A stretch of DNA of 64,000 bases, from assembly GCF_022023855.1 (NCBI RefSeq), contig NZ_CP059451.1, positions 434,001-498,000 of the forward strand, given 5' to 3'. Every line of letters starts with the position of its first letter. Positions within the stretch are counted from its first letter, which is position 1. The translations under genes were made by a program, and so were the position numbers. Under the pieces are notes generated by a model that was not told the origin of the DNA, did no database searches, and saw nothing but the letters and a program-made list of their open reading frames with translations. Positions 1 to 59,478 of the stretch are shown one piece after another. Origin of the DNA: Azospirillum brasilense. GTDB taxonomy: Bacteria > Pseudomonadota > Alphaproteobacteria > Azospirillales > Azospirillaceae.

Positions 1-51
1 GTCGCAGCGCCGGAAGACGCCCAGCGGCCCGCCACTGAAATCGCGATGCAT
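1..51 (-). CDS. N-terminus of an unidentified gene running off the left edge
   Basis: Only the first 17 codons are present, reading MHRDFSGGPLGVFRRCD from an ATG at 51. The start is preceded by a GAGGGAT ribosome binding site seven bases away, which makes it a credible gene start. It is divergent from the RidA gene that follows. Nothing in 17 residues identifies the product. The start codon and ribosome binding site lie in a perfect inverted repeat, described separately. Confidence 0.5.
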   Translation of the reverse strand, partial: MHRDFSGGPLGVFRRCD

Positions 52-68
52 GAATCCCTCTCATGCAT
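46..68 (-). promoter_or_regulatory. Inverted repeat enclosing a ribosome binding site and start codon
   Basis: Two perfect 8-base arms (ATGCATGA at 46-53 and TCATGCAT at 61-68) flank a 7-base spacer. Read on the minus strand the spacer is GAGGGAT, the likely ribosome binding site of the leftmost gene, and the second arm contains its ATG. In RNA this could fold into a hairpin that limits translation. As DNA it could equally be a dimeric-repressor operator between the divergent genes. The symmetry is seen directly; the function is inferred. Confidence 0.45.
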
Positions 69-154
69 GGAGGCCGGATAAATCGTTTGTCGGAAACTGG
101 CCGGACGCGGAGGTTTGGCCCGAGGCTTTCAGCATCGACAATGGAGGAATTGCC

Positions 155-607
155 TTGGCAAATGGAATTGAACGCTACGCGCTGGATAAGTCCTCGCCCT
201 ACCGGACCCAATTCCTGGAATCGGTACGGGTACCGGTCAATGGAACCGAGTTCCTGATGCTCAGCGGCCTGACGCCGCCGGTCATCGACCGCTCCGTGCC
301 TGACGACCGGGTCGAGGCCTATGGCGACACGGAGGTCCAGACCCGCAACATCCTGACGCAGCTGAAGGCCACGCTTGAACGGCGCGGCTATGGCCTGAAC
401 GACGTGGTCAAGGTCCAGGCCTTCCTGGTCGGCGACGCACAGATGGGCGGGCGGGCTGATTTCCAGGGCTTTTCCCGCGCCTACGCGGAGGCTTTCGGCA
501 CCATCGAAACCCCGAACATTCCGGTGCGCACCCGCGTGCAGGTGGCCGGGCTGGTGGAGCCGGGCTGGCTGGTGGAGATCGAGGCGATGGCCGCCAAGGC
601 GGGGTGA
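155..607 (+). CDS. RidA/YjgF-family protein
   Basis: The 150-residue product fits the RidA (YjgF/YER057c/UK114) family, whose members hydrolyse reactive enamine or imine intermediates, or act as related lyases in catabolic operons. The N-terminal stretch ALDKSSPYRTQFLESVRV, the LSGLTPP segment and the VEIEAMAA C-terminus are typical of the fold. I chose TTG at 155 because GGAGG sits seven bases upstream and the length then matches the family. An in-frame ATG at 50 would add 35 residues unlike the family. The gene lies downstream of the amidase on the opposite strand, next to the catabolic island, and probably detoxifies an intermediate of that pathway. Confidence 0.85.
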   Translation: MANGIERYALDKSSPYRTQFLESVRVPVNGTEFLMLSGLTPPVIDRSVPDDRVEAYGDTEVQTRNILTQLKATLERRGYGLNDVVKVQAFLVGDAQMGGRADFQGFSRAYAEAFGTIETPNIPVRTRVQVAGLVEPGWLVEIEAMAAKAG

Positions 608-622
608 CGGCCGTCGCGACGG

Positions 623-1939
623 TCAGGCGGGACGGTCCGATGCCCCGCCGAACCGGTCGGCGATGGCCAGAACCAGATCGTCCGCGCCCGGCCGCCCGAC
701 GATCTGGACCCCCACCGGCATCCCGTTGCGGTCGCGCCCGGCCGGCAGCGCCAGCGCCGGCAGGCCAAGCAGGCTGAAGGGGCGGTTGAAGCGCAGGAAA
801 GCCAGGGTGGTGACGCCGGCAATGGTCACGTCGTCGTCGTCGACACCGTCCAGACGCGGGGCCGGGCCGCCGATCACCGGACAGAGCAGGACGTCCGCCG
901 CCGCGAAAGCGCCCCCGATCACCGCCGCCCGATGGGCCTCGCGGCCGCGCAGCGCCTGGTCGTAGGCGTCGCGCCCCACCTCGGCCGCCGCGACCAAACG
1001 CCGCCGCACCGCCGCCGGGTACCAATCCGGCCGTTCGGCCAGCGCCGACCGGTGCAGGGCCGACGCCTCGAACGAGGTGATGGTCCCGGCGCAGGTGTTC
1101 AGCACGTCGAGCGACGGCAGGGCTACCTCGGTCGCCACCGCTCCGCCCTGGGTCATCCGGCGCAGGACGGACTGGATGACCGTGGCGATCTCCGAATCCA
1201 CTCCGGTCCGAATCCAATCCGCCAACAGGCCGACACGCAGAGGACCGGCACCCAGACGGTCAGGACCCGGATCGTGTTGCTCCACGGGAACCGGATCGCG
1301 CAGCGCGGCGAACACCGCGCGCAGCAGGGCGGGATCGCGGGCGATGATGCCGATGAGGTCCTGCGACGGCGACAGCGGTGCGATGCCGGGATCGCGGATG
1401 GATCCGGCCGTCGGCTTGAAGCCGAGGACGCCGCACAGGGCGGCTGGGATGCGCACCGACCCGCCGGTGTCGGTGCCGAGCGCGAAGGGCACGATGCCGG
1501 CCGCAACCGCCGCCGCCGACCCGCTCGACGACCCGCCGACGGCGAACCGCGCATCCACCGGGTTCAGCACCCGCCCGAAATAGGGATTCAGCCCGGTGGC
1601 GGCATAGCAATGCGGGTCGAGGTTCAGCGCCCCGATGGCGATGGCCCCCGCCGCCGCCAGACGGGCGAGCGCCACGCTGGTCCGCGCGCCGCCCCAGCGG
1701 TAGCCATGCCCGACCCCCACCGTCGGCTGCCGCCCGGCGGTGACGAAAACGTCCTTGTAGGCGAAGGGCAGCCCCCAGGGCGCCGGTCGCGGATCGTCCG
1801 CCGAGGTCGCCGATAGGGCCCGCGCCTGCTCCTCCGCGTCGGGGAACAGCTCGATGAAGGCGTTGAGCCGGCTGGTGCGCGCCGCGGCCAGGGCGGCCGC
1901 GACGGCCTGGGCGGGGTCGCGCGGAGACGCGGCGGTCAT
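623..1939 (-). CDS. Amidase-signature family amidohydrolase
   Basis: This 438-residue protein carries the full amidase signature. The catalytic Lys62 (LPFAYKD), cis-Ser137 in GGSSSGSAA and nucleophile Ser161 in DTGGSVRIP have the 24-residue Ser-Ser spacing of the family. Such enzymes hydrolyse amides, carbamoyl groups or allophanate to release ammonia. It is the last gene of the minus-strand run and is separated from the RraA gene by 108 bases containing a hairpin, so it may be expressed at a lower level than the rest. The substrate cannot be read from the sequence; the neighbouring deacetylase-like and aspartate-dehydrogenase-like genes suggest a nitrogenous compound. Confidence 0.9.
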   Translation of the reverse strand: MTAASPRDPAQAVAAALAAARTSRLNAFIELFPDAEEQARALSATSADDPRPAPWGLPFAYKDVFVTAGRQPTVGVGHGYRWGGARTSVALARLAAAGAIAIGALNLDPHCYAATGLNPYFGRVLNPVDARFAVGGSSSGSAAAVAAGIVPFALGTDTGGSVRIPAALCGVLGFKPTAGSIRDPGIAPLSPSQDLIGIIARDPALLRAVFAALRDPVPVEQHDPGPDRLGAGPLRVGLLADWIRTGVDSEIATVIQSVLRRMTQGGAVATEVALPSLDVLNTCAGTITSFEASALHRSALAERPDWYPAAVRRRLVAAAEVGRDAYDQALRGREAHRAAVIGGAFAAADVLLCPVIGGPAPRLDGVDDDDVTIAGVTTLAFLRFNRPFSLLGLPALALPAGRDRNGMPVGVQIVGRPGADDLVLAIADRFGGASDRPA

Positions 1940-2003
1940 GCTGAGGCCCTTTCAACAATGGTGTCGCGGTGTGGGGAATGGCGCGGCCTCCGTAATCCCG
2001 GAA

Positions 2004-2035
2004 CGGCCCCGTCCCGACAGGCGGAAACGGGGCCG
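2004..2035 (-). terminator. Strong hairpin between the RraA-like and amidase genes
   Basis: A perfect 9-base stem (CGGCCCCGT at 2004-2012 with ACGGGGCCG at 2027-2035) closes a 14-base loop just after the RraA-like stop codon. No U-run follows on the minus strand, so it is more likely a processing or stability hairpin or a weak terminator than a full intrinsic terminator. Confidence 0.4.
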
Positions 2036-2047
2036 CCGGGCGGGGCG

Positions 2048-2746
2048 TCAGACGTGGCCGTAGCGCTCCAGCGCCTGCGCCAGGGTCAGGCCGTTCGACA
2101 GCTCCTCGCGGATGCGGATCTCGGTCACGGTCAGCGCCTCGGATTCCGCCAGCACCTTCGGAACGATGGCCGCCGGGATGGCGAGCGCGCCGTCCTCGTC
2201 GGCCAGGATGAAGTCGCCCGGCTCGATCCTCACGCGCTCCACCGTGGCCCCGCGCAGAAAGACCGGAACCTGCCACGCGTTGACCTTCCAGCGGCCGATC
2301 GACTGCACCGGCGTGCGGTAGCGGGCGTAGACCGGGAAGCCGTGATGGCCGAGCCAGCGCACGTCGCGGATGCCACCGTCGACCAGCGCACCGGTGCTGC
2401 CGCGCTCCTTCATGCCGATGGCGATCAGCTCGCCGAAATAGCAGATGCCGTTGCCGTCACCGCTCCACACCGACACCTCGCCGGGCGACAGCCCCTGGCA
2501 GGCCGCCATCTTGTCGGCATCGCCGCCCAGCGGATAGGGCGTCATCTGGCCGCGGATGGTGTAGGCCCAGCCGGCCAGCCGCCCGGCGGTGGCGGGAAAG
2601 GGCATGAATTCCGCCGCCAGCCCCTGGTCGGGCCAGCCCATCACGTCGAGCACATCGGCGACGTTGGAGGTGTCGACAGCCAGGAAGCGGGTGCGGATGT
2701 CCTCGCGCTGCGCGGCGGTGAGGACAGTGTCGGTGCTGCTGCTCAT
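2048..2746 (-). CDS. RraA-family protein (4-hydroxy-4-methyl-2-oxoglutarate aldolase-like)
   Basis: The 232-residue product belongs to the RraA / HMG-aldolase family. It has the characteristic GELIAIGMKERGSTGALVDG region followed by GGIRD, which binds the carboxylated substrate and divalent metal. These proteins act as class II pyruvate or oxaloacetate aldolases or decarboxylases in many catabolic operons. The ATG at 2746 has a GAAGGA ribosome binding site; the frame stays open far upstream but overlaps the SDR gene, so the longer form is rejected. The start lies 20 bases after the SDR stop. It probably cleaves a keto-acid intermediate of the local pathway. Confidence 0.82.
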   Translation of the reverse strand: MSSSTDTVLTAAQREDIRTRFLAVDTSNVADVLDVMGWPDQGLAAEFMPFPATAGRLAGWAYTIRGQMTPYPLGGDADKMAACQGLSPGEVSVWSGDGNGICYFGELIAIGMKERGSTGALVDGGIRDVRWLGHHGFPVYARYRTPVQSIGRWKVNAWQVPVFLRGATVERVRIEPGDFILADEDGALAIPAAIVPKVLAESEALTVTEIRIREELSNGLTLAQALERYGHV

Positions 2747-2766
2747 ACTGGGGATCCTTCGGAATT

Positions 2767-3567
2767 TTAGATGCTGGGGATGTAGCCGCCGTCCACTCGC
2801 AGGGTGGAGCCGGTGACGTAGGCGGCGCGCTCGCTGGCCAGGAAAGCGACGGCGTCGGCGTATTCGCGGGGCTCGCCGTAGCGGGCCATCGGGATGGCGG
2901 CGGTGCTCTCGGCGACGACCTCGGCGACCGGCCGCCCCTCGCGCGCCGCCTTGCTCTCGTCCAGGAAGCGGATGCGGTCGGTGGCGATGCGGCCGGGCAG
3001 GACGACGTTGACGGTCACGCCGTCGGCCGCCACCTCGCGGGCCAGCGACTTGGACCAGCCGACCAGGGACAGGCGCAGCGCGTTGGACAAGGCGAGGTTG
3101 GGGATCGGCGCCACGACGCCCGACGAGGCGCTGGTGACGATCCGGCCCCAGCGCCGCTTCCGCATGCCGGGCAGCACCCGGTCGGTGATGCGGATGACCG
3201 ACAGCACCATCGCCTCGAACTGCACGGTCCAAACCTTCGGATCGACGCCGCTTGCCGGCGACGGCGGCGGGCCGCCGGTGTTGTTGACCAGGATGTCGAT
3301 TCCGCCGAACCGTTCCTCGGCCAGGGCGACGTTGCGGTCGGTGGCGGCCGCGTCGCCCAGGTCCCAGACGATGGGGAGGCAGGGTGCGGCGGTTTCGGCG
3401 CTGGCAAATTCGGTGAGAGCGGCGTTGGTGGCGGCCAGCGATGGTGCGTCGCGGTCGGCGATGACGAGGTTGGCGCCTTCGCGCGCCAGCCCCAGGGCGA
3501 TGGCGCGGCCGAGCCCGCCCCCGGCCCCGAGCACCAAGGCGGTGCGTCCGGAAAGTCCGAGATCCAT
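2767..3567 (-). CDS. Atypical short-chain dehydrogenase/reductase
   Basis: The 266-residue protein has a classical SDR Rossmann fold: the nucleotide loop GAGGGLG near residue 14, the NNTGG strand near 95 and the C-terminal YVTGSTLRVDGGY segment. The active-site tetrad is incomplete. Where YxxxK is expected, 13 residues after the catalytic-Ser region, the sequence reads S161-N-A-L-R165, so both the catalytic Tyr and Lys are missing. Its close relatives may use other chemistry, or the protein may be a binding or regulatory member. It sits between the RraA-like and aspartate-dehydrogenase-like genes in one run, 45 bases from the upstream stop. Confidence 0.85.
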   Translation of the reverse strand: MDLGLSGRTALVLGAGGGLGRAIALGLAREGANLVIADRDAPSLAATNAALTEFASAETAAPCLPIVWDLGDAAATDRNVALAEERFGGIDILVNNTGGPPPSPASGVDPKVWTVQFEAMVLSVIRITDRVLPGMRKRRWGRIVTSASSGVVAPIPNLALSNALRLSLVGWSKSLAREVAADGVTVNVVLPGRIATDRIRFLDESKAAREGRPVAEVVAESTAAIPMARYGEPREYADAVAFLASERAAYVTGSTLRVDGGYIPSI

Positions 3568-3612
3568 GACGAATCCCCCTTCTGTTTTTCGTTTCTTGCT
3601 GAAATCAGGCGC

Positions 3613-4470
3613 TCAGGAGCCGACGCGCAGCGGCGCGCGCAGCTTGCGCAGATAGGCCAACACCGACAGGGCAGTGATGCGGCCGGTCTTCGGGTTGTCG
3701 GTCGGGATGTTCTCGATCGCCATGGTGAAGGTCGCCGAGTCCGCCTCGACCTCGATGCGGTGGGTGTTGCGCTCCAGCGTCGGGTCGGCCCAGATCTCCA
3801 GCGTCGTGCGGTCGGGGCCGATGCCGGCCAGCGACAGCGCCACCGCGACATTCAGGTTGGCCGGGAAGCCGACCGCCGCCTCGCGCGGGGTGCCGTGGAA
3901 GATGCGCAGCGGACCGGTGATGTCCTCGATGGCGATGCCGTTCTCGACCAGATAGGGGGCGCCGACCAGACCGCGCACCGGCTTGCGCGTCACCATGCGC
4001 ACGGCGCGGATTTCCCCCTCCGCCGCCGCCGTCACCGCGTCGAGCCCGAGCAGCGCCCCGGTCGGCACGACGATCTGTCCGCAATGGGCGCGGGCGGTGG
4101 CGACCAGCCCCTCGTTGGCCAGCAGGGCGCCGGAGCTGAGCACCACCGCCGTCTTGCCGACGCGGAGGAACGGCTCGACGATCGCCGGAAGCAGGGCTGC
4201 GGGCGCGCATTCGACGACGAGGTCGGCGAGCGGCTCCAGCTCGGCGATGTCCACCACCGGCACCGGGTGGGTCAGGGCGGACAGACGGTCCGCCGCCGCC
4301 GCCTTGTCGCGGGCCGAGACGGCGGTCAGGACGCAGCCGTCGAGGCCCTCGTCAAGCGCCTCGACGATCTTCAGGCCGACGGCGCCGAGGCCGGCAACAG
4401 CGATCCGCAGCGGGGGCAGAGTGCGGGCGTGCGCCGGGGTTTGGGACAGCCCAAGGGGCGTCTCAGTCAT
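3613..4470 (-). CDS. Aspartate-dehydrogenase-like NAD(P)-dependent oxidoreductase
   Basis: The 285-residue product resembles the DUF108/NadX aspartate dehydrogenase family. An N-terminal Rossmann fold (IAVAGLGAVGLKI) is followed by the family region VVLSSGALLANEGLV and the C-terminal FPANLNVAVALSLAGIGPD motif. The family uses NAD(P) to interconvert L-aspartate or related amino acids and the 2-oxo (imino) acid with release of ammonia. ATG 4470 has an AAAGGT ribosome binding site and is preferred over the upstream in-frame start at 4518, which would run into the deacetylase stop region. Iminoaspartate-type products would fit the presence of RidA nearby. The true substrate is not known. Confidence 0.8.
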   Translation of the reverse strand: MTETPLGLSQTPAHARTLPPLRIAVAGLGAVGLKIVEALDEGLDGCVLTAVSARDKAAAADRLSALTHPVPVVDIAELEPLADLVVECAPAALLPAIVEPFLRVGKTAVVLSSGALLANEGLVATARAHCGQIVVPTGALLGLDAVTAAAEGEIRAVRMVTRKPVRGLVGAPYLVENGIAIEDITGPLRIFHGTPREAAVGFPANLNVAVALSLAGIGPDRTTLEIWADPTLERNTHRIEVEADSATFTMAIENIPTDNPKTGRITALSVLAYLRKLRAPLRVGS

Positions 4471-4525
4471 GATAGAACCTTTCGGATGGGAGCCGGCCCG
4501 AAGGAGGGCCGGCGTCAAGAACGGG

Positions 4526-5428
4526 TCATGGTCTGGCCGGGGCGGTGGTTGCCGGCGGCGGCATCAGACCGGCGAAGTGGTCGGCGATCTGGCCGGCGGT
4601 GGCGAACCAGACCTCGTCGCGGTGGGCGTCGAGATGCTCCAGCACCCGGCGGAACTGCTTGATGCGGAAGGGCTGGCCGACGATGAAGCTGTGGATGGTG
4701 ATGCCGTAGGCAAGCGGCTGGCCCTTCGACTGGCGCAGCATCTCGTCGAAATTGTCGATGGCCATGTCGGCGAAGGCCGGCGCCGTACCGTCATGCAGCA
4801 CCACCATCGGCACGTCGTTCACCTCATGCGGATAGGGCACGCTCAGCAACGGCCCGCCGGTGGTCCGCATCCACACCGGCTGGTCGTCCATCGGCCAGTC
4901 CAGCGTGTAGCGGTAGCCGGCCTCCGCCAGCAGATCCTCGGTGTTGGCGCTGGGGTGGGCGCCGGGGCTCATCCAGCCGGCGGGGGGCTTGCCCTCGTGG
5001 CGGCGGATGGCCTCGGTCGCCTCGGCGATCAGGCGGCGCTCCTCCTCCGGGCCCATGCCGTTCTGGTGTTCGCCGTTGGTCCGGCCATGGGCGACGATCT
5101 CGTCGCCGCGCCGGCGCAGCGCCGCGACCAGTTCCGGGCAGTGCTCGTAGCATTCGGTGTTGAGCAGCACCGTCAGCGGCAGGCGGTGGGCGTCGAACAG
5201 GTCGATCAGCCGCCAGCCGCCGACCCGGTTGCCATATTCCCGCCATGCCCAATTGTAGCTGTTGGGATGGCTCAGCCCCGGCGAATAGGGCAGTCCGAGG
5301 CCACTGCCGTAGGGGAAATGCTCGACGCAGAGCGCCACATAGACGGCCAGCCGCTTGCCCTCCGGCCAGGAGAAGTCGGGACGGTCGGTGATCGCGGAAT
5401 AGGGGAAGCGGTCGTGGGACGGAAGCAT
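4526..5428 (-). CDS. Polysaccharide-deacetylase-fold hydrolase (allantoinase/PuuE-like)
   Basis: The 300-residue protein has the NodB/polysaccharide deacetylase fold in the cofactor-variant form seen in PuuE allantoinases and related cyclic-amide hydrolases. Visible motifs include CVEHFPYG, LLNTECYEH, VAHGRTNGEHQNGM, GWMSPGAHPSANT and the late TIHSFIVGQPFR segment with a conserved His. Members cleave C-N bonds of cyclic amides or acetyl groups. Given an amidase and an aspartate-dehydrogenase-like enzyme in the same run, ring opening of a ureide or hydantoin-like substrate is the likelier role, by inference. There is no signal peptide, so it is cytoplasmic. It starts 28 bases after the binding-protein stop. 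Confidence 0.8.
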   Translation of the reverse strand: MLPSHDRFPYSAITDRPDFSWPEGKRLAVYVALCVEHFPYGSGLGLPYSPGLSHPNSYNWAWREYGNRVGGWRLIDLFDAHRLPLTVLLNTECYEHCPELVAALRRRGDEIVAHGRTNGEHQNGMGPEEERRLIAEATEAIRRHEGKPPAGWMSPGAHPSANTEDLLAEAGYRYTLDWPMDDQPVWMRTTGGPLLSVPYPHEVNDVPMVVLHDGTAPAFADMAIDNFDEMLRQSKGQPLAYGITIHSFIVGQPFRIKQFRRVLEHLDAHRDEVWFATAGQIADHFAGLMPPPATTAPARP

Positions 5429-5456
5429 CGCGGATCCTGCCTTCGGTTCGATGTAT

Positions 5457-6419
5457 TCAGGGCCGGTAGTCGGCCGGGGCGACGACGGAGCTTAGATCGA
5501 CCTCGCCCAGCGTGTCCGAGGTGACGAGCAGCGCCGGCAGCACGACCTTGGCCTCGACCGGCTTCTTCGCGGCGGCGGCCAGCGCGTGGGTGAAGGCGGC
5601 GCGGCCCTGCGCCACCACCTGCTGGATGGAGGTGCAGGCCAGCTCGCGGTCCTTCAGCAGCTGCTGCGCCGTCGGGCTGAAATTGGAGGCGGAGACCCGC
5701 ACCGCCGGCATGCGGCCGGCGGCCTTCATCGCGGCGACCACGCCGGCCGCCATGTCGTCGGTGGCGGCGTAGACGCCCTTCAGGTCGGGGAAGCGTTGGG
5801 TCCAGTCCTCCGCCGTGGTGAGGGCGGCGTTGCGGTTGTCGGCCAGCCGGGATTCGGCGACGACCGTCACCCCCGGCGCCTCCTTCGCCAGCGTCTCGCG
5901 GAAGCCCTTGGCCCGCAGGTCGGACCAAGCCTGCCCGGTCGGTCCCGCCATCATCGCCACCTCGCCCTTGCCGCCGATGGCCTGGGCCAAGCAGCGGGCC
6001 TGGAGACGGCCCATGTCGTAATGGTCGGCGCTGACCGTCGCGCTGAGCCGGTCGCTGTTGGGCGGCGAGGAGATCCCGATGACCGGGATGCCGCGGCCGA
6101 CCGCCTGCTCCACCACCGCCCGCACCGCATCGCCGTTGGTCGCCCCGACGATGATGGCGGCGACGCCGCGCTGGGCCAGATCCTGGATCTGGGCGATCTG
6201 CTGGCTGCTGTTGGCGTCGCCGCCGGCGTTCAGCTTGACCAGCGTGACTCCGGCGGCCCTGGCCTCCTGCTCCGCCCCGTAGACAGCGGAGATCCAGAAG
6301 GACGAGGCGAGGTTGGGGATGGCGAAGCCGATGGCCTTGTCCTGCGCCAGGGCCGGCGCGGTGGAGAGCAGCAGGAGGGCGGCGAGGTTTCCGGCGAAGC
6401 GGATCCGGGAGCGGTTCAT
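5457..6419 (-). CDS. Ribose-type ABC transporter substrate-binding protein
   Basis: The 320-residue periplasmic binding protein starts with a signal peptide (MNRSRIRF then a hydrophobic core ending PALAQ). It continues as a Peripla_BP_4/RbsB-like domain: KAIGFAIPNLASSFW, GVAAIIVGATNGDAV and VYAATDDMAAGVVAAMKAAG. It captures a small solute for the adjacent membrane complex. Its start overlaps the permease stop by four bases (ATGA), so the transporter genes are translationally coupled. The ligand need not be a sugar, since this subfamily also binds autoinducer, purine-like and polyol ligands. The local enzymes argue for a nitrogenous one. Confidence 0.9.
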   Translation of the reverse strand: MNRSRIRFAGNLAALLLLSTAPALAQDKAIGFAIPNLASSFWISAVYGAEQEARAAGVTLVKLNAGGDANSSQQIAQIQDLAQRGVAAIIVGATNGDAVRAVVEQAVGRGIPVIGISSPPNSDRLSATVSADHYDMGRLQARCLAQAIGGKGEVAMMAGPTGQAWSDLRAKGFRETLAKEAPGVTVVAESRLADNRNAALTTAEDWTQRFPDLKGVYAATDDMAAGVVAAMKAAGRMPAVRVSASNFSPTAQQLLKDRELACTSIQQVVAQGRAAFTHALAAAAKKPVEAKVVLPALLVTSDTLGEVDLSSVVAPADYRP

Positions 6420-7423
6420 GTCCGTTTCCTTGATTGGGAGTGGAAGGACGGCAGAGAGCGCAGAAGCGTTTCGAGAAGGCCGGAGGCGATGATGACCACC
6501 CCGACGGCGATCTGGGAGACGAAGGGCGAGACGCCCTGAAGGTTGAGGCCGGTCAGCAGCACCTGGATGAAGGCGGCCCCGGTCACGACGGCGGCCACGC
6601 TGGCGATGCCGCCGCTGAGTGCGGTTCCGCCGATGACCGCGGCGGCGATGGCCTGAAGCTCCATCCCCGCCCCCTCGGTCGGCAGGCCGGAGCCGGCGCG
6701 GACCGTCATCAGCACCCCGGCGAGGCCGGCGAACAGACCGCACAGGCCATAGGCCCAGAGCTGGACGCGCCGGGTGTCGACGCCGACCAGCGCCACCGCC
6801 TCGGGGTTCGATCCGGCCATCAGGATGCGGCGGCCAGCGAGGCTGCGGCCGACCAGCAGGGCGGCCCCGACCGCCAGGACCAGCGCCGCCCAGCTGGCGG
6901 CGGGCAGGACCGGCATCGGCTCGAATCCGAGACGGGTCACCGCGCCGGCCGCGTCGAGCGGCACCACCTGCCCGTCGCCGGTGATCAGCAGCGAGAGGCC
7001 GCGCACCGCGATCAGGCTGCCCAGGGTGGCGATCACCGGCTGGAGGCCGAGCGTGCCGACCAGCGCGCCGTTGACCAGCCCGCAGAGCAGCCCGGCCAGC
7101 GCCCCGGCAGCCAGCCCGGGCAAGCCCCAGGCGTTGCAGGCCATCGCCGCACAGACGCTGGACAGGGCGGCGACGGCGCCGACCGAGATGTCGAAGCCCC
7201 GGGTCGCCAGCACGAACATCTGGCCGATGGCGAGCAGGGCGAGGACCCAGACCTGCGCCCCGATGTTGGCGGCGTTGCCCAGGCTGAGGAAGCGCGGCGC
7301 GGTGGCCGCGAACACCGCCACCGCCAGGATCAGGCAGAGCGGCGCGACCCGGAAGGGGACGGGAAGGACGGAGCCGGCGGCGCGCAGGCCATCGGCGGAG
7401 AGGCGCAGGAGACGGGCGCTCAT
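6416..7423 (-). CDS. ABC transporter permease, RbsC family (first)
   Basis: The 335-residue integral membrane protein belongs to the BPD_transp_2 family. Its hallmark RGFDISVGAVAALSSVCAA follows the first membrane segments and GGTALSGGIASV lies near the C-terminus. It forms a heteromeric channel with the next permease. ATG 7423 overlaps the stop of that permease by four bases. The open frame extends further upstream, but that part is a shadow of the neighbour. Confidence 0.9.
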   Translation of the reverse strand: MSARLLRLSADGLRAAGSVLPVPFRVAPLCLILAVAVFAATAPRFLSLGNAANIGAQVWVLALLAIGQMFVLATRGFDISVGAVAALSSVCAAMACNAWGLPGLAAGALAGLLCGLVNGALVGTLGLQPVIATLGSLIAVRGLSLLITGDGQVVPLDAAGAVTRLGFEPMPVLPAASWAALVLAVGAALLVGRSLAGRRILMAGSNPEAVALVGVDTRRVQLWAYGLCGLFAGLAGVLMTVRAGSGLPTEGAGMELQAIAAAVIGGTALSGGIASVAAVVTGAAFIQVLLTGLNLQGVSPFVSQIAVGVVIIASGLLETLLRSLPSFHSQSRKRT

Positions 7424-8424
7424 GACCGGTCCTCCTCTGGCTGGCGGGCGGGCCGGACCGGCAGCAGCAGGAGCAGCCGGGGCGCCTGCTGGAGGATCAC
7501 GGCGCCGAGGATCACGGCGGCGATCATCAGCTGCTGATAGGCGACGGGCAGGTTCAGCAGCACCACCGCGTTGTTCAGCATGGCGATGACCAGCACGCCG
7601 CACAGCGTCTGCACCGCCCGCCCCTGCCCGCCCGCCAGCGGGATGCCGCCGACGGCGCAGGCCGCGATGGTCTCGAAGGGCAGGTTGGGAGCGAGGCCGG
7701 GCTGGCCGGAGGCGACCCGGCTGGTCAGGATCACGGCGGTAAGCGCGCAGAAGGCGCCGGCCAGCAGATATCCCGCCAGCACCACCCGCCACACCGTGAT
7801 GCCGGACAGCCGCGCCGCCGTGCCGTTGGCGCCGACGAGGTACCAGAGCCGACCGGCGCGGGTGTGGGCAAGCAGCACGTGCAGCAATGCGAAGCTTGCC
7901 GCCGCCGCCAGGATCGGCACCGGGATACCGGCGACCCGGCCGCGCGCCGGCCAGGAGAAGGCGTCGCTCGGCGGCGCGTCGATCGGCAGGCCGCCGGCCA
8001 GAACCGCCGCCCCGCCGCCGGCCACCATCAGCATGCCGAGCGTGACGAGGAAGGGCGGCAGGGAAAAGCGCGCGACCAGCGTGCCGTTGACGAATCCCAC
8101 CAGCAGCACCGCCGTGGCACCGGCCGCGAAGCCGCCCGCCACCCCGGCGGACGGCAGGGCCAGCACCGTCACCACGCTGGCCAGCGCCGCCGACGCCCCG
8201 AAGGAGAACTCGATCCCGCCGAGGATCAGCACGATGGTCTGGCCGCAGGCGGCAATGCCGAGAATGGAACCGACCCGCAGCAGATTCTCCAGATTGCCGG
8301 CGCTGGCGAAGCGCGGCACCGCCAGGGCGAAGACGCAGAACAGCAGCAGGACGACCCAGACGGCGGCGGGCGGGTTGAGGCGGCCGGAGAAGGGGCGCGG
8401 CGGGGCGCCGGTCAGGGGTATCAT
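7420..8424 (-). CDS. ABC transporter permease, RbsC family (second)
   Basis: The 334-residue paralogue of the downstream permease has the same family hallmarks in degenerate form (LGGIEFSFGASAALASVV and VGGIPLAGGQGRAV), with roughly ten hydrophobic segments. Two different permeases in one operon imply a heterodimeric pore. ATG 8424 overlaps the ATPase stop by four bases. The charged C-terminus RPARQPEEDRS is cytoplasmic. Confidence 0.88.
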   Translation of the reverse strand: MIPLTGAPPRPFSGRLNPPAAVWVVLLLFCVFALAVPRFASAGNLENLLRVGSILGIAACGQTIVLILGGIEFSFGASAALASVVTVLALPSAGVAGGFAAGATAVLLVGFVNGTLVARFSLPPFLVTLGMLMVAGGGAAVLAGGLPIDAPPSDAFSWPARGRVAGIPVPILAAAASFALLHVLLAHTRAGRLWYLVGANGTAARLSGITVWRVVLAGYLLAGAFCALTAVILTSRVASGQPGLAPNLPFETIAACAVGGIPLAGGQGRAVQTLCGVLVIAMLNNAVVLLNLPVAYQQLMIAAVILGAVILQQAPRLLLLLPVRPARQPEEDRS

Positions 8425-9947
8425 GCCGCCCTCCGTCCGGCCAGCCGGTCCATCAGGGCGGCGCGGCCGGTGCCGCGCGGCAGCTCGCCGTCGAGGCTGC
8501 CATGCCGCACGACCAGGATGCGGTGCGACAGTGCCATGACCTCGTCGAGGTCGCTGGAGGCGACTATGACGGCGATGCCCCGGCCGGCAGCCTCGACCAG
8601 CGCGTCGTGGATGATTTCCCGCGCGGCGATGTCGACGCCGCGCGTCGGTTCCAGCACCACCAGGACCCGCAGGTCCGGCACCGCCAGATTGCGCGACAGC
8701 AGCAGCTTCTGCTGGTTGCCGCCGCTGAAACCGGCGGCCGGACGCTCCGGCTGGAAGGGGTGCAGGTTCAGCCGGCGCAGCCAAGGCATCAGCGCCGCCG
8801 CCTCGCCGCCCGGCCGCAGCAGCCCGCCGCGCGAGAACAGCGCAACGGTTGAGGAGGACGCGTTCTGGAGCGCCGCCAGCGGGCCGAACAGCCCCTCGGC
8901 GTGGCGGTCGGCCGGAACATAGCCGACCCCGGCGGCGACGGCCCGCACGCGGTCGCCCGTCGGCAGCGTCTCCCCCCGCACCGCGAGCGTGCCCGCGGCG
9001 ACCGGCCGCGCCCCCGCCAATGCCGCCGCCAGATCCAGGGCACCCGAACCGACCAGCCCGGCCAGCCCGACGATCTCACCCGCACGCACGGTAATGTCGG
9101 CCGGAGCGTCCGCCGGCCCCAGCCGCAGCCCGGTCGCAGTCAGCACCGGGGCCCCCGGCTGCGGCAGCGTGCGGTCGCCGGACTCCACCATGTCGCCCAA
9201 CATGGCGCGGATCAGCTCGGCGCGGGTCAGCGAGGCCAGCGGCTCGGCGTCGATCACCGCGACGCCGTCGCGCAGGACAGTAACGTCGTCGGCCAGCGCC
9301 TCGATCTCGTCGAACTTGTGGCTGATGAAGAGGACGGCGGTGCCCTCCGCGCACAGGCGGCGGACCACGCCGAACAGCCGGTCGGTCTCGTCATGCGTCA
9401 GGGCGGCGGTCGGCTCGTCCAGCACCAGCAGCGTGCAGCGCTGCCCCAGCCCGCGGGCGATCTCCACCAGCTGGCGCTCGCCGACCGACAGCCGCTCGAC
9501 CGGAAGGTCGAGGTCGCAGCCGAGGCCGACCGCGTCCAGCCAGGCCCGTGCCGTGGCGCGCGGCACCAGGGCCGGCCGGGCGCGCAGACCCGCCGCCCCC
9601 GCGATGGCGAAGGCCGACAGGTTCTCCAGCACCGACAGATGGGGGAACAGGCTGAGATGCTGGTAGATCGGGATCACCCCGGCGGCAATCGCCTGCCGCA
9701 CCCCGGCGAAACGGGTCGGAACACCGTTCAGCGCGATCCGCCCGCGGTCGGGCTGGATCGCCCCGACGACGATCTTCACCAGCGTGCTCTTGCCGGCGCC
9801 GTTCTCGCCAAGAAGTGCATGGACCTTTCCCGGCCGCAGCCGCAACGAAGCGTTGCGGAGCGCACAGGTCGCCCCGTAATTCTTGGCAATGCCGCTGACT
9901 TCGAGCGTCCAAATCTTACCGGGATCACCCCTTGTCTGTCGTGTCAT
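8421..9947 (-). CDS. Double-domain sugar-type ABC transporter ATP-binding protein
   Basis: The 508-residue protein has two tandem ABC domains, as in RbsA/MglA. Domain 1 has Walker A GENGAGKS at residues 47-54, signature LSVGERQLVEIARG and Walker B LLVLDEPTA. Domain 2 has the degenerate Walker A region GLVGSGALDL normal for this family, and signature FSGGNQQKLLLS. I start it at ATG 9947 rather than the open start at 10034, because the extra 29 residues are basic low-complexity sequence unlike the family. It is the first gene of the operon, and the promoter lies in the 154 bases shared with the divergent LysR gene. Confidence 0.9.
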   Translation of the reverse strand: MTRQTRGDPGKIWTLEVSGIAKNYGATCALRNASLRLRPGKVHALLGENGAGKSTLVKIVVGAIQPDRGRIALNGVPTRFAGVRQAIAAGVIPIYQHLSLFPHLSVLENLSAFAIAGAAGLRARPALVPRATARAWLDAVGLGCDLDLPVERLSVGERQLVEIARGLGQRCTLLVLDEPTAALTHDETDRLFGVVRRLCAEGTAVLFISHKFDEIEALADDVTVLRDGVAVIDAEPLASLTRAELIRAMLGDMVESGDRTLPQPGAPVLTATGLRLGPADAPADITVRAGEIVGLAGLVGSGALDLAAALAGARPVAAGTLAVRGETLPTGDRVRAVAAGVGYVPADRHAEGLFGPLAALQNASSSTVALFSRGGLLRPGGEAAALMPWLRRLNLHPFQPERPAAGFSGGNQQKLLLSRNLAVPDLRVLVVLEPTRGVDIAAREIIHDALVEAAGRGIAVIVASSDLDEVMALSHRILVVRHGSLDGELPRGTGRAALMDRLAGRRAA

Positions 9948-10101
9948 GGCTGTTCGTGTCACAGTAACCCTCGCGCTTGCCCTGTTTCTTCTGAACTCTG
10001 ACGGTTCAGTGACGGGAAGCGTGCCGGAGGACACCGGACCTCACAAACGACTTGTTCGGCCCCTATGCATGATCTAAGCTCATCCATGGGAGGCCATGCC
10101 G

Positions 10102-11115
10102 ATGCCGAAACGACCGCTGCCGCCGCTCAACACCCTGCGCGGGTTCGACGCCGCCGCGCGGCACCTCTCCTTCACGATGGCGGCCGACGAACTGCACTTG
10201 ACCCAGGGGGCGATCAGCCGACAGGTGCGCGACCTGGAACTGGCGCTGGACTGCCAGCTGTTCCGCCGGATGACCCGGCGCATCGAACTGACGCCGGAGG
10301 GCGAGGATTTCGCCCGCACCGTCCGCGATTGCCTGGGTGAGCTGGAGCGCTCGGCGCAGCGGATTGGCCGGTCGCGGACGATGCGCACGCTGACCATCTC
10401 GATCCTGCCGACCATCGCGTCGCTGTGGCTGATGCCGCGCCTGCATCTGTTCACCCAGGCCAACCCCGGCGTCGAGGTGCGGATCATCTCGTCGATCGAG
10501 CCGTCGAACCTGCTGGCGCACGAGGCCGACATCGCGATCCGCGTCGGCCGCATCCCGGGCCGCCGCTACGAGCGCGGGCAGCCGCGCATCGACCTAGACA
10601 TGGTGACGAGCTGGGACGGCGTGCAGGCCGACGAGCTGTTTCCCGACATCCTCCGCCCGGCCTGCGCGCCAGCACTTGCGGGTGAGGCGGTGCTGGAGGA
10701 CGGGCGGCCGGTGGTGCGCCTGCCGCTGATCCACACCTCCAGCCGCCGGCACGCCTGGCCGGACTGGCTGAAGGCGACCGGCGGACAAGCCGTCGCCGGA
10801 ACCGGAGGCGGGCTGGAGTTCGGCCATTTCTTCATGTCGCTGGACGCCGCCCGCCAGGGCCGCGGAATTGCCATCGTGCCCGACATCCTGCTGGCGCAGT
10901 ACGATCGCCGCGCCGAACTGGCGATGCCGCTGCCATCCGAGGTGCGCAGCGCCGGCGAATATTACCTGCTAATCCACGAAAGCCGGCTGGACGACCCCCG
11001 GACGCAGGCTTTCCGCGGCTGGATCCTCTCGGAATCCCGCAAGGCGCGCGATGGGTTGACGTCCTCGGTCGACCGGTGCGCCAGCAGCTCTCTTTCGCAG
11101 CTTTCCGATCTTTAG
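10102..11115 (+). CDS. LysR-family transcriptional regulator (GcvA-like)
   Basis: The protein has an N-terminal winged helix-turn-helix (PLNTLRGFDAAARHLSFTMAADELHLTQGAISRQV, residues about 7-65) of the GcvA/AmpR subgroup and a LysR substrate-binding domain. ATG 10102 is preferred over ATG 10096 because GGGAGG ends at 10093, leaving a proper 8-base spacing only for the second ATG. It is divergent from the ABC transporter and enzyme operon and most likely controls it in response to the transported compound. The last 25 or so residues (KARDGLTSSVDRCASSSLSQ...) look foreign and run into IS debris, so the native C-terminus has probably been replaced. Confidence 0.88.
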   Translation: MPKRPLPPLNTLRGFDAAARHLSFTMAADELHLTQGAISRQVRDLELALDCQLFRRMTRRIELTPEGEDFARTVRDCLGELERSAQRIGRSRTMRTLTISILPTIASLWLMPRLHLFTQANPGVEVRIISSIEPSNLLAHEADIAIRVGRIPGRRYERGQPRIDLDMVTSWDGVQADELFPDILRPACAPALAGEAVLEDGRPVVRLPLIHTSSRRHAWPDWLKATGGQAVAGTGGGLEFGHFFMSLDAARQGRGIAIVPDILLAQYDRRAELAMPLPSEVRSAGEYYLLIHESRLDDPRTQAFRGWILSESRKARDGLTSSVDRCASSSLSQLSDL

Positions 11116-11400: not shown

Positions 11401-12490
11401 TCAATCAAAGACAGCTATGGCCGAGCGGATGCTGATCCCACCGTCCTTGGTCCGCCGAAGTTGGCGCCCGACAGCGTAACGAAAGACGGCAGGAAGCTGG
11501 AGGGCTGGGGGAACACGGGACCAGAGAGTTTGGATCACCGTCCGCCCTTTTCGTGTCCGGCGTTGGGCCTGACCTGCCACTGTGCGCTGGGACCAGCGGA
11601 AACCGATCTCGCCAAAGTACAGGTCGGCGTGGTCGGAGCTGATGTGATGGAAGACGCCGGCGATCGTGCGCCGGACACGATCGTTGAAGCCTTCGGCCGA
11701 GTTGGCATGCACGCTGCCGCGCACATACTCGCGCTGGGAATGGCGGACCGTATCGTGCGCACCGAATGCGCTCCCGATGGCGACGAACGCCTTATTCGTC
11801 GCTCATCAAGTGCGCGTCGGGATCGACAGCGGTTTCCAGCACCCGCTCGGCCTCGTCGAGCGACAGGTCGGCGACCACCGCGGCACGGGCTTCGCCCGCC
11901 GGTGTCCCCGGTTTCCGGCTGCTTGGCCGCTGGACGACCGCGAGGGCTGGTGTCTTCGTCGTACGGGGATGGCCCTTGCGTCCTCGCCCCAGTTTTGGAG
12001 GGTTGGGGTCACGACGCGGCTTGGCGCCGAAATGGAACTCGTCGATCTCCACCGTCCCACCCAGCGGATGGTCACGCAACACCAGAAGCCGCAGGACGTG
12101 GCCCATTCGCCATGCCGTTGGCTGGCTGACGCCGAGTGCTTCGGCCAGACGGATGGACGAGATGCCCTTGTCCGATTGCAGAATGAACCACAGCCCCATG
12201 AGCCAAGTCCGCAACGGCAGCTTCGTTCCATGCAACGGGGTTCGCGTCGTCACGGTGAACTGGAAGCGGCAGTCCGCATTGCAGCACTGATAAAGCCCCG
12301 GCCGGGACCGTCGTCCCGTGTCTCGCCCCGCCAGGGTGATCGAGCGCCGCGAGCCGCAGGCCGGACAGAGCCGTCCGTTCGGCCACACCATCGCCTCAAC
12401 CAACTGGCGGGACCGCGCCTCGTCGCGGAACGCTTCGGTCATCTCCGCCACGGTTCGAATGGCCGTCAGCTCCTCCAGCACCGATCCCAT
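11401..12490 (-). pseudogene. IS1595 (ISXO2-like) family transposase, frameshifted
   Basis: The N-terminal part (start ATG 12490) has a zinc ribbon CPACGSRR...CCNADC and the ISXO2 core TAWRMGHVLRLL...GGTVEIDEFHFGAK. At about 11792 the frame stops in DAHLMSDE. The family sequence then continues in another frame (NKAFVAIGSAFGAHDTVRH, then VHANSAEGFNDRVRRTIAG and HADLYFGEIGFRWSQR) down to a stop at 11401. A two-base deletion at GACGAATAAG explains the shift, so the gene is inactive unless this is a sequencing error. The element lies in the 3' end of a truncated LD-carboxypeptidase gene. Confidence 0.85.
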
Positions 12491-12529
12491 CGTCCCCTCC
12501 GCGCTTGATGGCTGAGAGTCGCACGTAAC

Positions 12530-12919
12530 CGCTCTGGTGCCTACTGGGATGGCGACAGCATCTGGGCCGTGGCCAAGCGGCAGACCACCCAAGATGGGCA
12601 CGCCGAGAAGAAAGAGGCGGTCGCGCAGAACATCAACGACCGACCAGCCTTGGGATTCGTTAAATCCAATAAATTGGCCGGCGGCAATCCCGCGTATGCC
12701 ATCCAGGCAACCGGCTTTCAGCAGCCGGGTGAGATGCCGATCGATATGGCCGAGGCCTTTCTCGACATCCTCGATCAGCAGGATAGCGCCCGCCAGGCGG
12801 GGCAAAACCCAGCCTGCGGCTGCCGCGATCATGTCGAGGTTACCGCCCAGGAGAACGCCGTTGGCCCGCCCGTGACTGGTAAGGGCTGCCGTAATCTCGT
12901 TTGGTTTCGAGCATACGGT
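12530..12919 (-). pseudogene. ldcA: C-terminal half of an LD-carboxypeptidase (peptidase S66, LdcA-like)
   Basis: About 130 residues match the second half of muramoyltetrapeptide LD-carboxypeptidases, which trim D-Ala from murein peptides. The fragment shows GVLLGGNLDMI, ILLIEDVEKGLGHIDRHLTRL, CLDGIRGIAAGQF and LLGVPILGGLPLGHG, including the usual catalytic Glu and His. The N-terminal half with the nucleophilic Ser is absent. One side is fused to an IS3 transposase fragment and the other to the IS1595 element, so this is a stranded remnant. A family match by eye is reasonably sure; a functional product is not expected. Confidence 0.75.
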
Positions 12920-13147
12920 GATCGTCTCGGCCAAGGCGTTGTCATAGGAATCGCCGACGCTGCCGACGGACGGCTCGACGCCGGCTTCGGTGAGGCGCTC
13001 GGTGTACCGAATGGCGACATATTGCGATCCGCGATCGGAATGATGGACGGGGCCGCTGCCCTTGGCCGGCCGGCGGTCGTGCAGCGCCTGCTTCAGGGCG
13101 TCCAGAACGAAGCCGGCATGAGCGGTGCGCGACACCCGCCAGACCAC
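12920..13147 (-). pseudogene. IS3-family OrfB transposase, internal integrase-core fragment
   Basis: The 76 codons cover the rve integrase core of an IS3-family OrfB: VLDALKQALHDRRP, VHHSDRGSQYVAIRY, then VGSVGDSYDNALAETI with catalytic Asp residues. The start and the whole C-terminus are missing. The frame fuses directly into the LD-carboxypeptidase remnant after AETI. The complementary C-terminal part of a near-identical transposase occurs 32 kb away at 44860-45109, and the two share a 43-base stretch with one mismatch. Confidence 0.85.
12925..12967 (+). repeat. Left copy of a 43-bp direct repeat bounding a 32-kb block
   Basis: These 43 bases recur at 45061-45103 in the same orientation with a single mismatch at position 20 of the repeat. 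Both copies encode the VGDSYDNALAE stretch of an IS3-family transposase. The arrangement could be an imprint of recombination between IS copies or of integration at an IS. Confidence 0.8.
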
Positions 13148-27068: not shown

Positions 27069-27108
27069 GCGGCTGGCGGATGAACACTTCCGGTGCCCGC
27101 CGACCGTA

Positions 27109-27720
27109 TCAGAGATGCCCGACCGCACGGATGACCGACGGCAACGCCGCGATGCGGTCGGCCCAGCCCAGCAGCCGGTCGAATCCGCCGGCCCCCTCAA
27201 GCAGCCCCCGGCGCATCCGCACAACCGGAAAGAGCGCCAGGTCGGCGAGCGACAGCTCGTCGGCCAGGAAATCCCGGCCGGTGAGCCGCGTCTCGCATCC
27301 CCGCATGATGTTGAGCAGGCGCCCTTCCAGGAAGGCGGTGGTCGCGGGGGTGGCGTCCGGAACATCGCGTCCGACATAGAGGAGGGCGGCGCTGGCCGGG
27401 TTGGCGTCGCTGACCGCCAGCATGAACCATTGCAGCGCCGCCAGCCGGCGGCGCGGATCCGGCGGGATCAGGCGCCCGGTCCGTTCCGCGACGTGCAGCA
27501 TGATCGCTCCCGACTGGGACAGGACGATCGGCTCTCCGTCCGTCCGGTGGTCGATCATTACCGGCACCGCGCCCACCGGATTCAGGGCCAGGAATTCGGG
27601 GGTCCTGTGCTCGTTGCGCAGAAGGTCGAGCTTGTGCCCGCGGAAGGCCGATCCGCCTTCCTCAAGAGCGATCAAGGCCCGCAGGCTGTTGCCGGAGTTG
27701 GCGTAATAGAGGTCGATCAT
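27109..27720 (-). CDS. Glutathione S-transferase family protein
   Basis: The 203-residue protein has a thioredoxin-like N-terminal domain (MIDLYYANSGNSLRALIALEE, then NPVGAVPVMIDH and the glutathione-contact segment VLSQSGAIMLHVAE) and an all-helical C-terminal domain with DFLADELSLADLALFPVV. The N-terminal Ser (NSGNSLR) is the likely catalytic residue. It overlaps the upstream gene by four bases (ATGA). It may conjugate or isomerise an intermediate of the NRPS cluster, or give self-protection; both are inference. Confidence 0.88.
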   Translation of the reverse strand: MIDLYYANSGNSLRALIALEEGGSAFRGHKLDLLRNEHRTPEFLALNPVGAVPVMIDHRTDGEPIVLSQSGAIMLHVAERTGRLIPPDPRRRLAALQWFMLAVSDANPASAALLYVGRDVPDATPATTAFLEGRLLNIMRGCETRLTGRDFLADELSLADLALFPVVRMRRGLLEGAGGFDRLLGWADRIAALPSVIRAVGHL

Positions 27721-57060: not shown

Positions 57061-57097
57061 TTCAAGCGGATGGCCTTCAAGCGGATGGCCTTCAAGC
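57061..57097. repeat. 15-bp tandem repeat between lspA and the P-type ATPase
   Basis: The unit TTCAAGCGGATGGCC occurs twice in full (57061-57075, 57076-57090) and a third time in part (to 57097), running into the ATPase stop codon. On the minus strand it would encode KAIRL repeats. It lies in the leader of lspA, so copy-number change could affect that gene's translation. Confidence 0.8.
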
Positions 57098-59287: not shown

Positions 59288-59354
59288 GTTCCACTCCGAC
59301 CGGCGATATGAGGGGCCGCGGTGGGGAAGGACGCGCGGCTGCCTGTCGTGCGCC

Positions 59355-59385
59355 ATCCTGGACCCTGGAGTCACTACAGGGTCAA
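59355..59385 (-). promoter_or_regulatory. MerR-family-type promoter/operator for the P-type ATPase
   Basis: On the minus strand TTGACC (59385-59380) and CAGGAT (59360-59355) are separated by 19 bases. Between them lies a dyad, ACCCTG (59362-59367) with CAGGGT (59377-59382) on the plus strand. The overlong spacer with a central dyad is diagnostic of promoters activated by MerR-family sensors such as ZntR, CadR or PbrR. No merR-type gene is in the window, so the activator must be encoded elsewhere. Confidence 0.8.
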
Positions 59386-59478
59386 GAGAGTTTTTTCTTG
59401 GTGGGGACGGCGCCGGGATCGTCCGCATGTTGACGGAGGGAGTCTTCCTCCGCCGCCACGGCGCCATGACGGCGGACG

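What the first reader, a model, noticed from the sequence alone, without database searches (positions are those of the whole stretch)
623..9947. Transporter-linked nitrogen-compound degradation operon with an unusual enzyme set
A ribose-type ABC importer is encoded in one run with an amidase, an allantoinase-like deacetylase-fold hydrolase, an aspartate-dehydrogenase-like enzyme, an RraA-type aldolase and a catalytically odd SDR, with RidA alongside and a GcvA-like LysR divergent. I know no named pathway with this exact combination. Ring opening, deamidation and aldol cleavage of a cyclic amide or ureide is a coherent reading.
Basis: inference. Interest (0 to 1): 0.6.

Follow-up and report, generated by a model that had tools for sequence, protein, structure and literature searches.

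The report
Operon turning N-ring compounds into aspartate
A soil bacterium carries a rare, mobile set of genes that probably imports a small nitrogen-containing ring molecule, opens the ring, and strips out its nitrogen by way of aspartate; the gene set is conserved across distant bacteria, but which molecule it eats is not known.

Summary
In detail: a CUT2 ABC importer, PuuE-fold hydrolase (PDA), aspartate dehydrogenase (AspDH), SDR with YxxxK lost (SxxxR), RraA protein and amidase run as one operon (window 623-9947), with RidA convergent and a GcvA-like LysR divergent. It is a real, conserved but rare module: PDA and AspDH are neighbours in 28 of 37 loci whose PDA is at least 62% identical and in 0 of 43 at 50-62%; 32 AspDH-linked PDAs fall in one 35-member clade spanning Alphaproteobacteria, Pseudomonas and Actinomycetota. 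Two actinobacterial copies carry an NCS1 nucleobase-type permease instead of the importer; wider PDA relatives sit beside hydantoinases and barbiturase-like enzymes. PDA resembles PuuE in fold but fails the allantoinase model, and the genome has its own PuuE. Close AspDH relatives lie next to aspartate ammonia-lyase. Best reading: ring opening of a cyclic ureide or imide, deamidation to aspartate, oxidation to oxaloacetate (RidA clearing the imine), decarboxylation by RraA. The substrate is unidentified and the SDR's role unexplained. Ten searches of open-access papers found no account of this combination.

The parts
50..607 (+). RidA-family imine deaminase, convergent with the operon
   Evidence: PF01042; R160/E178 kept; also next to the operon's LysR in Bosea and Pseudomonas
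623..1939 (-). Amidase-signature amidase (K62, Ser137-139, S161 kept), last gene of the operon
   Evidence: PF01425 256 bits; module amidases other than those of Pseudomonas form one clade, support 0.995
2048..2746 (-). RraA-family aldolase/decarboxylase (R127-D128 kept, D-X20-R-D reads E106-X20-R-D)
   Evidence: PF03737, residues, aligned in 13 rows
2767..3567 (-). SDR with YxxxK replaced by S161xxxR165
   Evidence: same SxxxR in PDB 2z1n and 5va8
3613..4470 (-). Aspartate dehydrogenase, only copy in this genome
   Evidence: NF009825 417.9 bits, cut-off 253; own-genome search
4526..5428 (-). PuuE-class (NodB fold) hydrolase, second metal His replaced by N118; proposed ring opener
   Evidence: AlphaFold pLDDT 88; VIA Z 34.7 to PuuE 3cl6; TIGR03212 136 bits against cut-off 424.6
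5457..6419 (-). Periplasmic binding protein (Peripla_BP_4), not a canonical ribose binder
   Evidence: PF13407; NF007936 RbsB 85 bits against cut-off 337
6416..7423 (-). ABC permease 2 (BPD_transp_2)
7420..8424 (-). ABC permease 1 (BPD_transp_2)
8421..9947 (-). Double-domain CUT2 ATPase, first gene of the operon
9948..10095 (.). Divergent regulatory gap
   Evidence: sequence; no sigma-70-type match
10096..11115 (+). GcvA-like LysR regulator, divergent
   Evidence: NF008352 264 bits, cut-off 288; kept at the same place in Bosea, Microvirga and Pseudomonas

Best explanation
The operon is a catabolic module for a small N-heterocycle, most likely a cyclic ureide or imide on an aspartate skeleton (candidates: dihydroorotate, hydantoin-5-acetate, aminosuccinimide). 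The CUT2 importer brings it in. The PuuE-class hydrolase opens the ring. The amidase removes the freed amide or carbamoyl group, leaving L-aspartate. AspDH oxidises aspartate to iminosuccinate, RidA hydrolyses the imine to oxaloacetate plus ammonia, and RraA decarboxylates oxaloacetate to pyruvate. The SDR does an accessory step I cannot assign. Shown: gene content, order, conservation, fold, intact or lost catalytic residues. Inferred: every reaction, the order of steps and the substrate. My sub-estimates: N-heterocycle ring opening rather than sugar 0.75; aspartate as the amino-acid intermediate 0.6; any one named substrate at most 0.25.
For: Core: PDA with AspDH in 28 of 37 loci at PDA identity 62% or more, 0 of 43 below; one clade with 32 of 35 linked, the 56 PDAs on the other side of the root with 0 linked. 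PDA has the small-molecule PuuE fold (Z 34.7 to PuuE; chitin deacetylases about 20). NCS1 permease directly after RraA in two actinobacterial loci, L047 and L048. Wider PDA relatives beside dihydropyrimidinase (L043, L010), N-carbamoyl-amino-acid hydrolase plus hydantoinase (L107), ring-opening amidohydrolase (L110), xanthine dehydrogenase plus amidase (L109), TRZ/ATZ deaminase (L053). Dihydropyrimidinase also near two AspDH-linked loci, L020 (scanned) and L024 (same sequence cluster). Aspartate: equivalog AspDH model passed; aspartate ammonia-lyase beside the PDA locus of Leisingera and beside an 80% identical, frame-broken AspDH with a dicarboxylate/amino-acid symporter in Methylobacterium. 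RidA linked in three genera. Known analogues: histamine (hin) and fungal nicotinate (hxn) pathways pair ring opening with amidases (PMC8231116, PMC6467879, PMC9304392, passages read).
Against: If oxaloacetate is the product, RraA and the SDR are not needed, yet both are shared by Alphaproteobacteria and Actinomycetota. Bosea loci lack the amidase (5 of 5 genome loci; plasmid L100). Amidase-signature enzymes are not known to me as carbamoyl-aspartate hydrolases. Leisingera's aspA is split over two open frames and its binding protein is only 31% like ours. Nine of 37 loci show no AspDH, though two of these contigs end at or just after PDA. L035 and L039 add a nitrile hydratase that the scheme does not need. 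NCS1 was seen in two of four actinobacterial full operons. No assay links any member to a substrate.
Confidence: 0.5

Rival explanations
1. Same ring opening and deamidation, but the amino acid is a 3-substituted aspartate (hydroxy- or methyl-). AspDH makes a substituted oxaloacetate, the SDR acts on its side group, and RraA does a true retro-aldol cleavage.
For: Explains why SDR and RraA are conserved across phyla and why lineages without them carry other 2-oxo-acid enzymes: a GhrA-like D-2-hydroxyacid dehydrogenase in Pseudomonas, a TPP enzyme in Leisingera.
Against: Many members lack both SDR and RraA (Ahrensia, Pseudomonas, L031, L044, L045), and close AspDHs sit beside aspartate ammonia-lyase.
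Confidence: 0.2
2. The substrate is an imidazolone or imidazole-acetate relative; PDA or its partners make N-formimino- and N-formyl-aspartate, as in histamine degradation.
For: The hin pathway ends in aspartate and uses an enamine deaminase, two amidases and aspartate ammonia-lyase (PMC6467879, PMC8231116 passages). L030 (PDA 76%) has an HpaB monooxygenase, an aspartoacylase-like protein, an M20 hydrolase and a cytosine-deaminase-like hydrolase before PDA.
Against: No monooxygenase in the window operon or among the core genes of the other full operons; L030 is a single contig. I could not test whether HinH is a PDA relative.
Confidence: 0.13
3. A sugar or amino-sugar pathway: ribose-type importer, sugar deacetylase, SDR and RraA.
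For: CUT2 importers mostly carry sugars (general knowledge).
Against: The metal-binding HxxxH of CE4 deacetylases is lost (H114xxxN118, 28 of 28 rows); no sugar kinase or isomerase in the operon; binding protein fails the RbsB model; NCS1 takes the importer's place in two actinobacterial loci.
Confidence: 0.06
4. A second allantoin pathway.
For: PuuE fold and weak TIGR03212 hit.
Against: 136 bits against a cut-off of 424.6, while the genome has another PuuE at 442 bits; AspDH has no place in allantoin breakdown (general knowledge).
Confidence: 0.03

Closest known systems
Histamine/imidazole-4-acetate (hin) pathway of Pseudomonas putida U
   Same: N-heterocycle to aspartate, with an enamine deaminase (HinL), amidases (HinG, HinH) and aspartate ammonia-lyase (HinI) (PMC6467879, PMC8231116, passages)
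   Different: Starts with a monooxygenase (HinF), no AspDH, SDR or RraA named, no CUT2 importer named
Aspergillus nidulans nicotinate (hxn) pathway, HxnM cyclic imidase plus HxnN amidase
   Same: NodB-fold hydrolase opens a cyclic imide, then an amidase frees ammonia (PMC9304392, PMC8478523, passages)
   Different: HxnM is of the HpPgdA-like group, whose member HpPgdA binds a metal; ends in hydroxyglutarate; no AspDH
PuuE allantoinase
   Same: Fold (Z 34.7, rmsd 2.2 A, 283 aligned) and loss of the CE4 metal site
   Different: 27% identity, fails the family cut-off, other genomic context
Anaerobic orotate degradation (dihydroorotate to carbamoyl-aspartate to aspartate), recalled
   Same: Cyclic ureide opened to an N-carbamoyl-aspartate, then aspartate
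   Different: Different enzyme families (recalled); not tested here
Ectoine catabolism clusters of Rhizobium and Mesorhizobium
   Same: A 48-49% identical AspDH sits with ehuABCD, an Xaa-Pro-peptidase-family protein and an amidase
   Different: No PDA or RraA in the stretch; dedicated ectoine importer

Membership tests
PuuE allantoinase (TIGR03212) | Curated score cut-off 424.6 bits | tested here: not met
   136.1 bits; the genome's own PuuE scores 442.3
PuuE allantoinase (TIGR03212) | PuuE-class NodB fold | tested here: met
   VIA Z 34.7 to 3cl6, rmsd 2.2, 283 aligned
Metal-dependent NodB enzymes (CE4 deacetylases, HpPgdA-like imidases) | Asp/His/His metal site with HxxxH | tested here: not met
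   H114xxxN118 in 28 of 28 aligned rows; HpPgdA His90 aligns with the Asn
Metal-dependent NodB enzymes (CE4 deacetylases, HpPgdA-like imidases) | Cyclic imide hydrolysis | not testable with these tools
   needs an assay
Aspartate dehydrogenase (NF009825) | Curated equivalog cut-off 253 bits | tested here: met
   417.9 bits
Aspartate dehydrogenase (NF009825) | NAD(P)-dependent oxidation of aspartate | not testable with these tools
   needs an assay
4-carboxy-4-hydroxy-2-oxoadipate aldolase / oxaloacetate decarboxylase (NF006731, TIGR02798) | Curated cut-offs 179 and 304.5 bits | tested here: not met
   71.5 and 70.3 bits
RraA-type class II aldolase | D-X20-R-D motif (recalled) | tested here: inconclusive
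   R127-D128 kept, first Asp is E106
Classical SDR | Catalytic YxxxK | tested here: not met
   S161xxxR165 in 12 of 12
Amidase signature family (PF01425) | Gathering score and Ser-Ser-Lys triad | tested here: met
   256 bits against 27; K62, Ser137-139 run, S161
Ribose importer RbsABC | RbsB equivalog cut-off 337 bits | tested here: not met
   85.3 bits
hin histamine pathway | Monooxygenase HinF in the gene set | tested here: not met
   no such gene in 623-11115
hin histamine pathway | HinH and HinG homologues | not tested
   no Hin sequence was at hand; PDA search of 40 Pseudomonas genomes could not identify hin operons

The most novel reading that the evidence does not exclude
An undescribed catabolic pathway, shared by horizontal transfer between Alphaproteobacteria, Pseudomonas and Actinomycetota, in which a metal-free PuuE-type hydrolase opens a cyclic ureide or imide for which no aerobic pathway is known, releases aspartate (or a 3-substituted aspartate), and uses an SDR with a Ser/Arg instead of a Tyr/Lys centre for a reaction new to that superfamily.
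Probability: 0.35. Interest if true: 0.65.

Novelty: new variant of a known kind. Interest (0 to 1): 0.42.

Why it matters
NodB-fold proteins are routinely annotated 'polysaccharide deacetylase'. This module shows a large clade of them working, very probably, in N-heterocycle breakdown, and gives a compact testable gene set to find the substrate. It would also give a function to a conserved SDR subgroup without the normal catalytic residues, and show where some catabolic aspartate dehydrogenases get their aspartate. The interest is moderate: the enzyme families are known, the combination and substrate are not.

Tried and rejected
Literature: ten searches of the open-access library listed no paper describing this combination; most subscription papers are not in it, and the PuuE structure paper (JBC 2008) is not held, so its residues were not used.

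Allantoinase: rejected because of the score and the presence of another PuuE. The first scan of L002 and L003 used the wrong strand and gave nothing; it was repeated on the right strand.

Sugar pathway: no support found in any neighbourhood read.

Nitrile hydratase in L035 looked like an artefact because a spurious long frame overlapped it; reading the frames showed real beta and alpha subunits before PDA. Unexplained.

RidA subfamily: P0001 relatives in other Pseudomonas loci lie beside genes that I read by eye as Tat-exported flavin amine oxidases; suggestive of imine hydrolysis, not scanned.

HinH as a PDA relative: tried through 40 Pseudomonas genomes; hits were PuuE-like (about 31%) and tandem 25-27% copies; not resolved.

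Amidase tree: in 24 rows the module amidases form one clade (0.995) except those of Pseudomonas, which look separately recruited. Rows L017, L018, L051, L037, L115, L116, L121, L122 were left out as near-duplicates. The PDA tree left out L001-L009, L096, L114-L122, L126 and L127 as duplicates; L039 was labelled AspDH-linked before this was verified, and one search then confirmed a frame-broken AspDH there. Trees are FastTree, midpoint-rooted.

The search for related loci kept the best 80 of 170 relatives, so the 37 and 43 are of those 80.
Full report
WHAT IS THERE. The window comes from an unnamed 7.39 Mb genome whose nearest hits are Azospirillum. Between 623 and 9947, on the minus strand, nine genes run with gaps of -4 to 55 bp, and 108 bp before the last: CUT2 ATPase, two permeases, Peripla_BP_4 binding protein, NodB-fold hydrolase (PDA), aspartate dehydrogenase (AspDH), SDR, RraA and amidase. 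RidA (50-607) is convergent and a GcvA-like LysR (10096-11115) is divergent.

IT IS A CONSERVED MODULE. The PDA was used to fetch 80 loci from one-genome-per-species contigs (best 80 of 170). In 37 loci with PDA at 62% identity or more, AspDH lies next to it in 28 (27, plus L039, where it is frame-broken); in the 43 loci at 50-62% it never does. The misses are L030, L034, L036, L038, L041, L042, L043, L049 and L050; two of them (L030, L049) end at or just after PDA. By the same count RraA was found in 18 of 37, SDR in 13, amidase in 15, RidA in 9, and this operon's type of binding protein in 18. In a tree of 99 PDAs, 32 of 35 in one clade (support 0.987) are AspDH-linked, 1 of 8 in its sister group, and 0 of 56 in the rest. 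The clade holds Azospirillum, Microvirga, Bosea, Ahrensia, Leisingera, Pseudomonas, mycobacteria, Pseudonocardia and other actinobacterial genomes. Full or near-full operons were also read in L100 (Bosea plasmid), L123 (Actinomycetes) and L124 and L125 (order of Bosea).

IT IS RARE. At E 1e-110 to 1e-120, centres included, PDA was found in 5 of 385 Alphaproteobacteria, of which G000 and one more passed 1e-130, 2 of 394 Actinomycetes, 5 of 397 of the Bosea order and 1 of 274 Gammaproteobacteria; in its own order 12 of 82 passed 1e-50, six of them at 96-100% identity. AspDH occurs once in this genome, in the operon. This is the pattern of a specialised, horizontally moved catabolic island.

THE ENZYMES. 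PDA: the AlphaFold model (mean pLDDT 88) matches PuuE allantoinase (Z 34.7), then HpPgdA (30.9), then chitin deacetylases (about 20). The second metal-binding His of CE4 enzymes is Asn118 in 28 of 28 rows; PuuE too lacks the metal (PMC10967932 and PMC3084791, passages). It is not allantoinase by score (136 against 424.6 bits), and the genome has another PuuE (442 bits). AspDH passes its equivalog model (417.9 against 253). The amidase keeps K62, the Ser137-139 run and S161. RraA keeps R127-D128; the first Asp of the recalled D-X20-R-D motif is Glu. The SDR reads S161xxxR165 at the YxxxK position in 12 of 12 orthologues, a feature shared with PDB entries 2z1n and 5va8. RidA keeps R160 and E178. 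The binding protein fails the RbsB model (85 against 337 bits) and scores best with TorT (129.5, below its cut-off of 200); in the alignment to a ribose-binding protein its Asp-Arg pair reads Ser-Ser (that this pair contacts ribose is recalled).

WHAT THE NEIGHBOURS SAY. In two actinobacterial loci an NCS1 (cytosine/purine/allantoin-type) permease follows RraA and no CUT2 importer orthologue was found (L047, L048). The wider PDA family sits beside dihydropyrimidinase (L010, L043), N-carbamoyl-D-amino-acid hydrolase with hydantoinase and racemase (L107), ring-opening amidohydrolase with ureidoglycolate lyase (L110), xanthine dehydrogenase with amidase (L109), hydantoinase and dihydroorotate-dehydrogenase-like genes (L106) and a TRZ/ATZ deaminase (L053). 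Two AspDH-linked loci, L020 and L024, also have dihydropyrimidinase-cluster genes within about 10 kb, in different positions (L020 scanned, L024 by clustering only). On the aspartate side, Leisingera's locus carries aspartate ammonia-lyase in two broken frames; a Methylobacterium plasmid has an 80% identical, frame-broken AspDH beside a dicarboxylate/amino-acid symporter and aspA; more distant AspDHs (48-49%) sit in ectoine clusters of Rhizobium and Mesorhizobium. RidA travels with the operon in Azospirillum, Bosea and Pseudomonas at two different positions.

HOW IT PROBABLY WORKS. Import; ring opening by PDA; removal of the freed amide or carbamoyl group by the amidase, giving aspartate; AspDH to iminosuccinate; RidA to oxaloacetate and ammonia; RraA to pyruvate. 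The gene content is shown; every reaction is inferred. Lineages that lack SDR and RraA but keep PDA and AspDH fit a product that enters central metabolism. Against this, SDR and RraA are shared by Alphaproteobacteria and Actinomycetota, and other lineages carry a GhrA-like dehydrogenase plus glyoxalase-fold protein (Pseudomonas) or a TPP enzyme and aldehyde dehydrogenase (Leisingera). That is why I keep the rival in which the 2-oxo acid is a substituted oxaloacetate that really is cleaved by aldolysis.

COMPARISON. The scheme works like two known pathways. In histamine degradation, HinF, HinL (enamine deaminase), HinH and HinG (amidases) lead from imidazole-4-acetate to aspartate and HinI is aspartate ammonia-lyase (PMC6467879 and PMC8231116, passages). 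In fungal nicotinate degradation, HxnM opens a cyclic imide and HxnN hydrolyses the amide (PMC9304392 and PMC8478523, passages). It belongs to neither: no monooxygenase, no metal-binding imidase, and an AspDH that neither account names. I found no published account of the combination in ten searches of open-access papers, which leaves subscription papers unseen.

VERDICT. New variant of a known kind; interest 0.42, because the substrate is unknown and the enzyme families are familiar.

Noticed in passing
window 31314-34580 (-): Single NRPS-type protein with AMP-binding, carrier and condensation domains, with an MFS protein (25617-27377) and a DAO-type FAD oxidoreductase (28679-30313) nearby.
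   Followed up: no
window 11792-13147 (-): Open frame that reads by eye as fused remnants of transposases; a Pfam scan of its C-terminal 238 aa found nothing. GC falls from about 0.72 to about 0.65 here.
   Followed up: partly
L035 7163-8226, L039: Nitrile hydratase beta and alpha subunits directly before PDA-AspDH-RraA in actinobacterial MAGs.
   Followed up: partly
L030 4979-9975: HpaB monooxygenase, aspartoacylase-like protein, M20 hydrolase and cytosine-deaminase-like amidohydrolase directly before a 76% identical PDA.
   Followed up: partly
L104, L105: AspDH inside ectoine uptake and breakdown clusters on plasmids of Mesorhizobium and Rhizobium.
   Followed up: no
L053-L095, cluster of about 150-aa proteins: The AspDH-free PDA clade is preceded by a conserved small protein of NTF2/SnoaL size in 30 loci and by a TRZ/ATZ-type deaminase cluster in 18; probably another uncharacterised N-heterocycle pathway. 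The one small protein scanned matched no Pfam family.
   Followed up: partly
L163-L166: The RidA subfamily of P0001 lies next to proteins that look by eye like Tat-exported flavin amine oxidases in other Pseudomonas.
   Followed up: partly
window 39953-44095, 57092-59467, 59479-62796: AcrB-type efflux pump, heavy-metal P-type ATPase and a multi-PAS hybrid histidine kinase.
   Followed up: no
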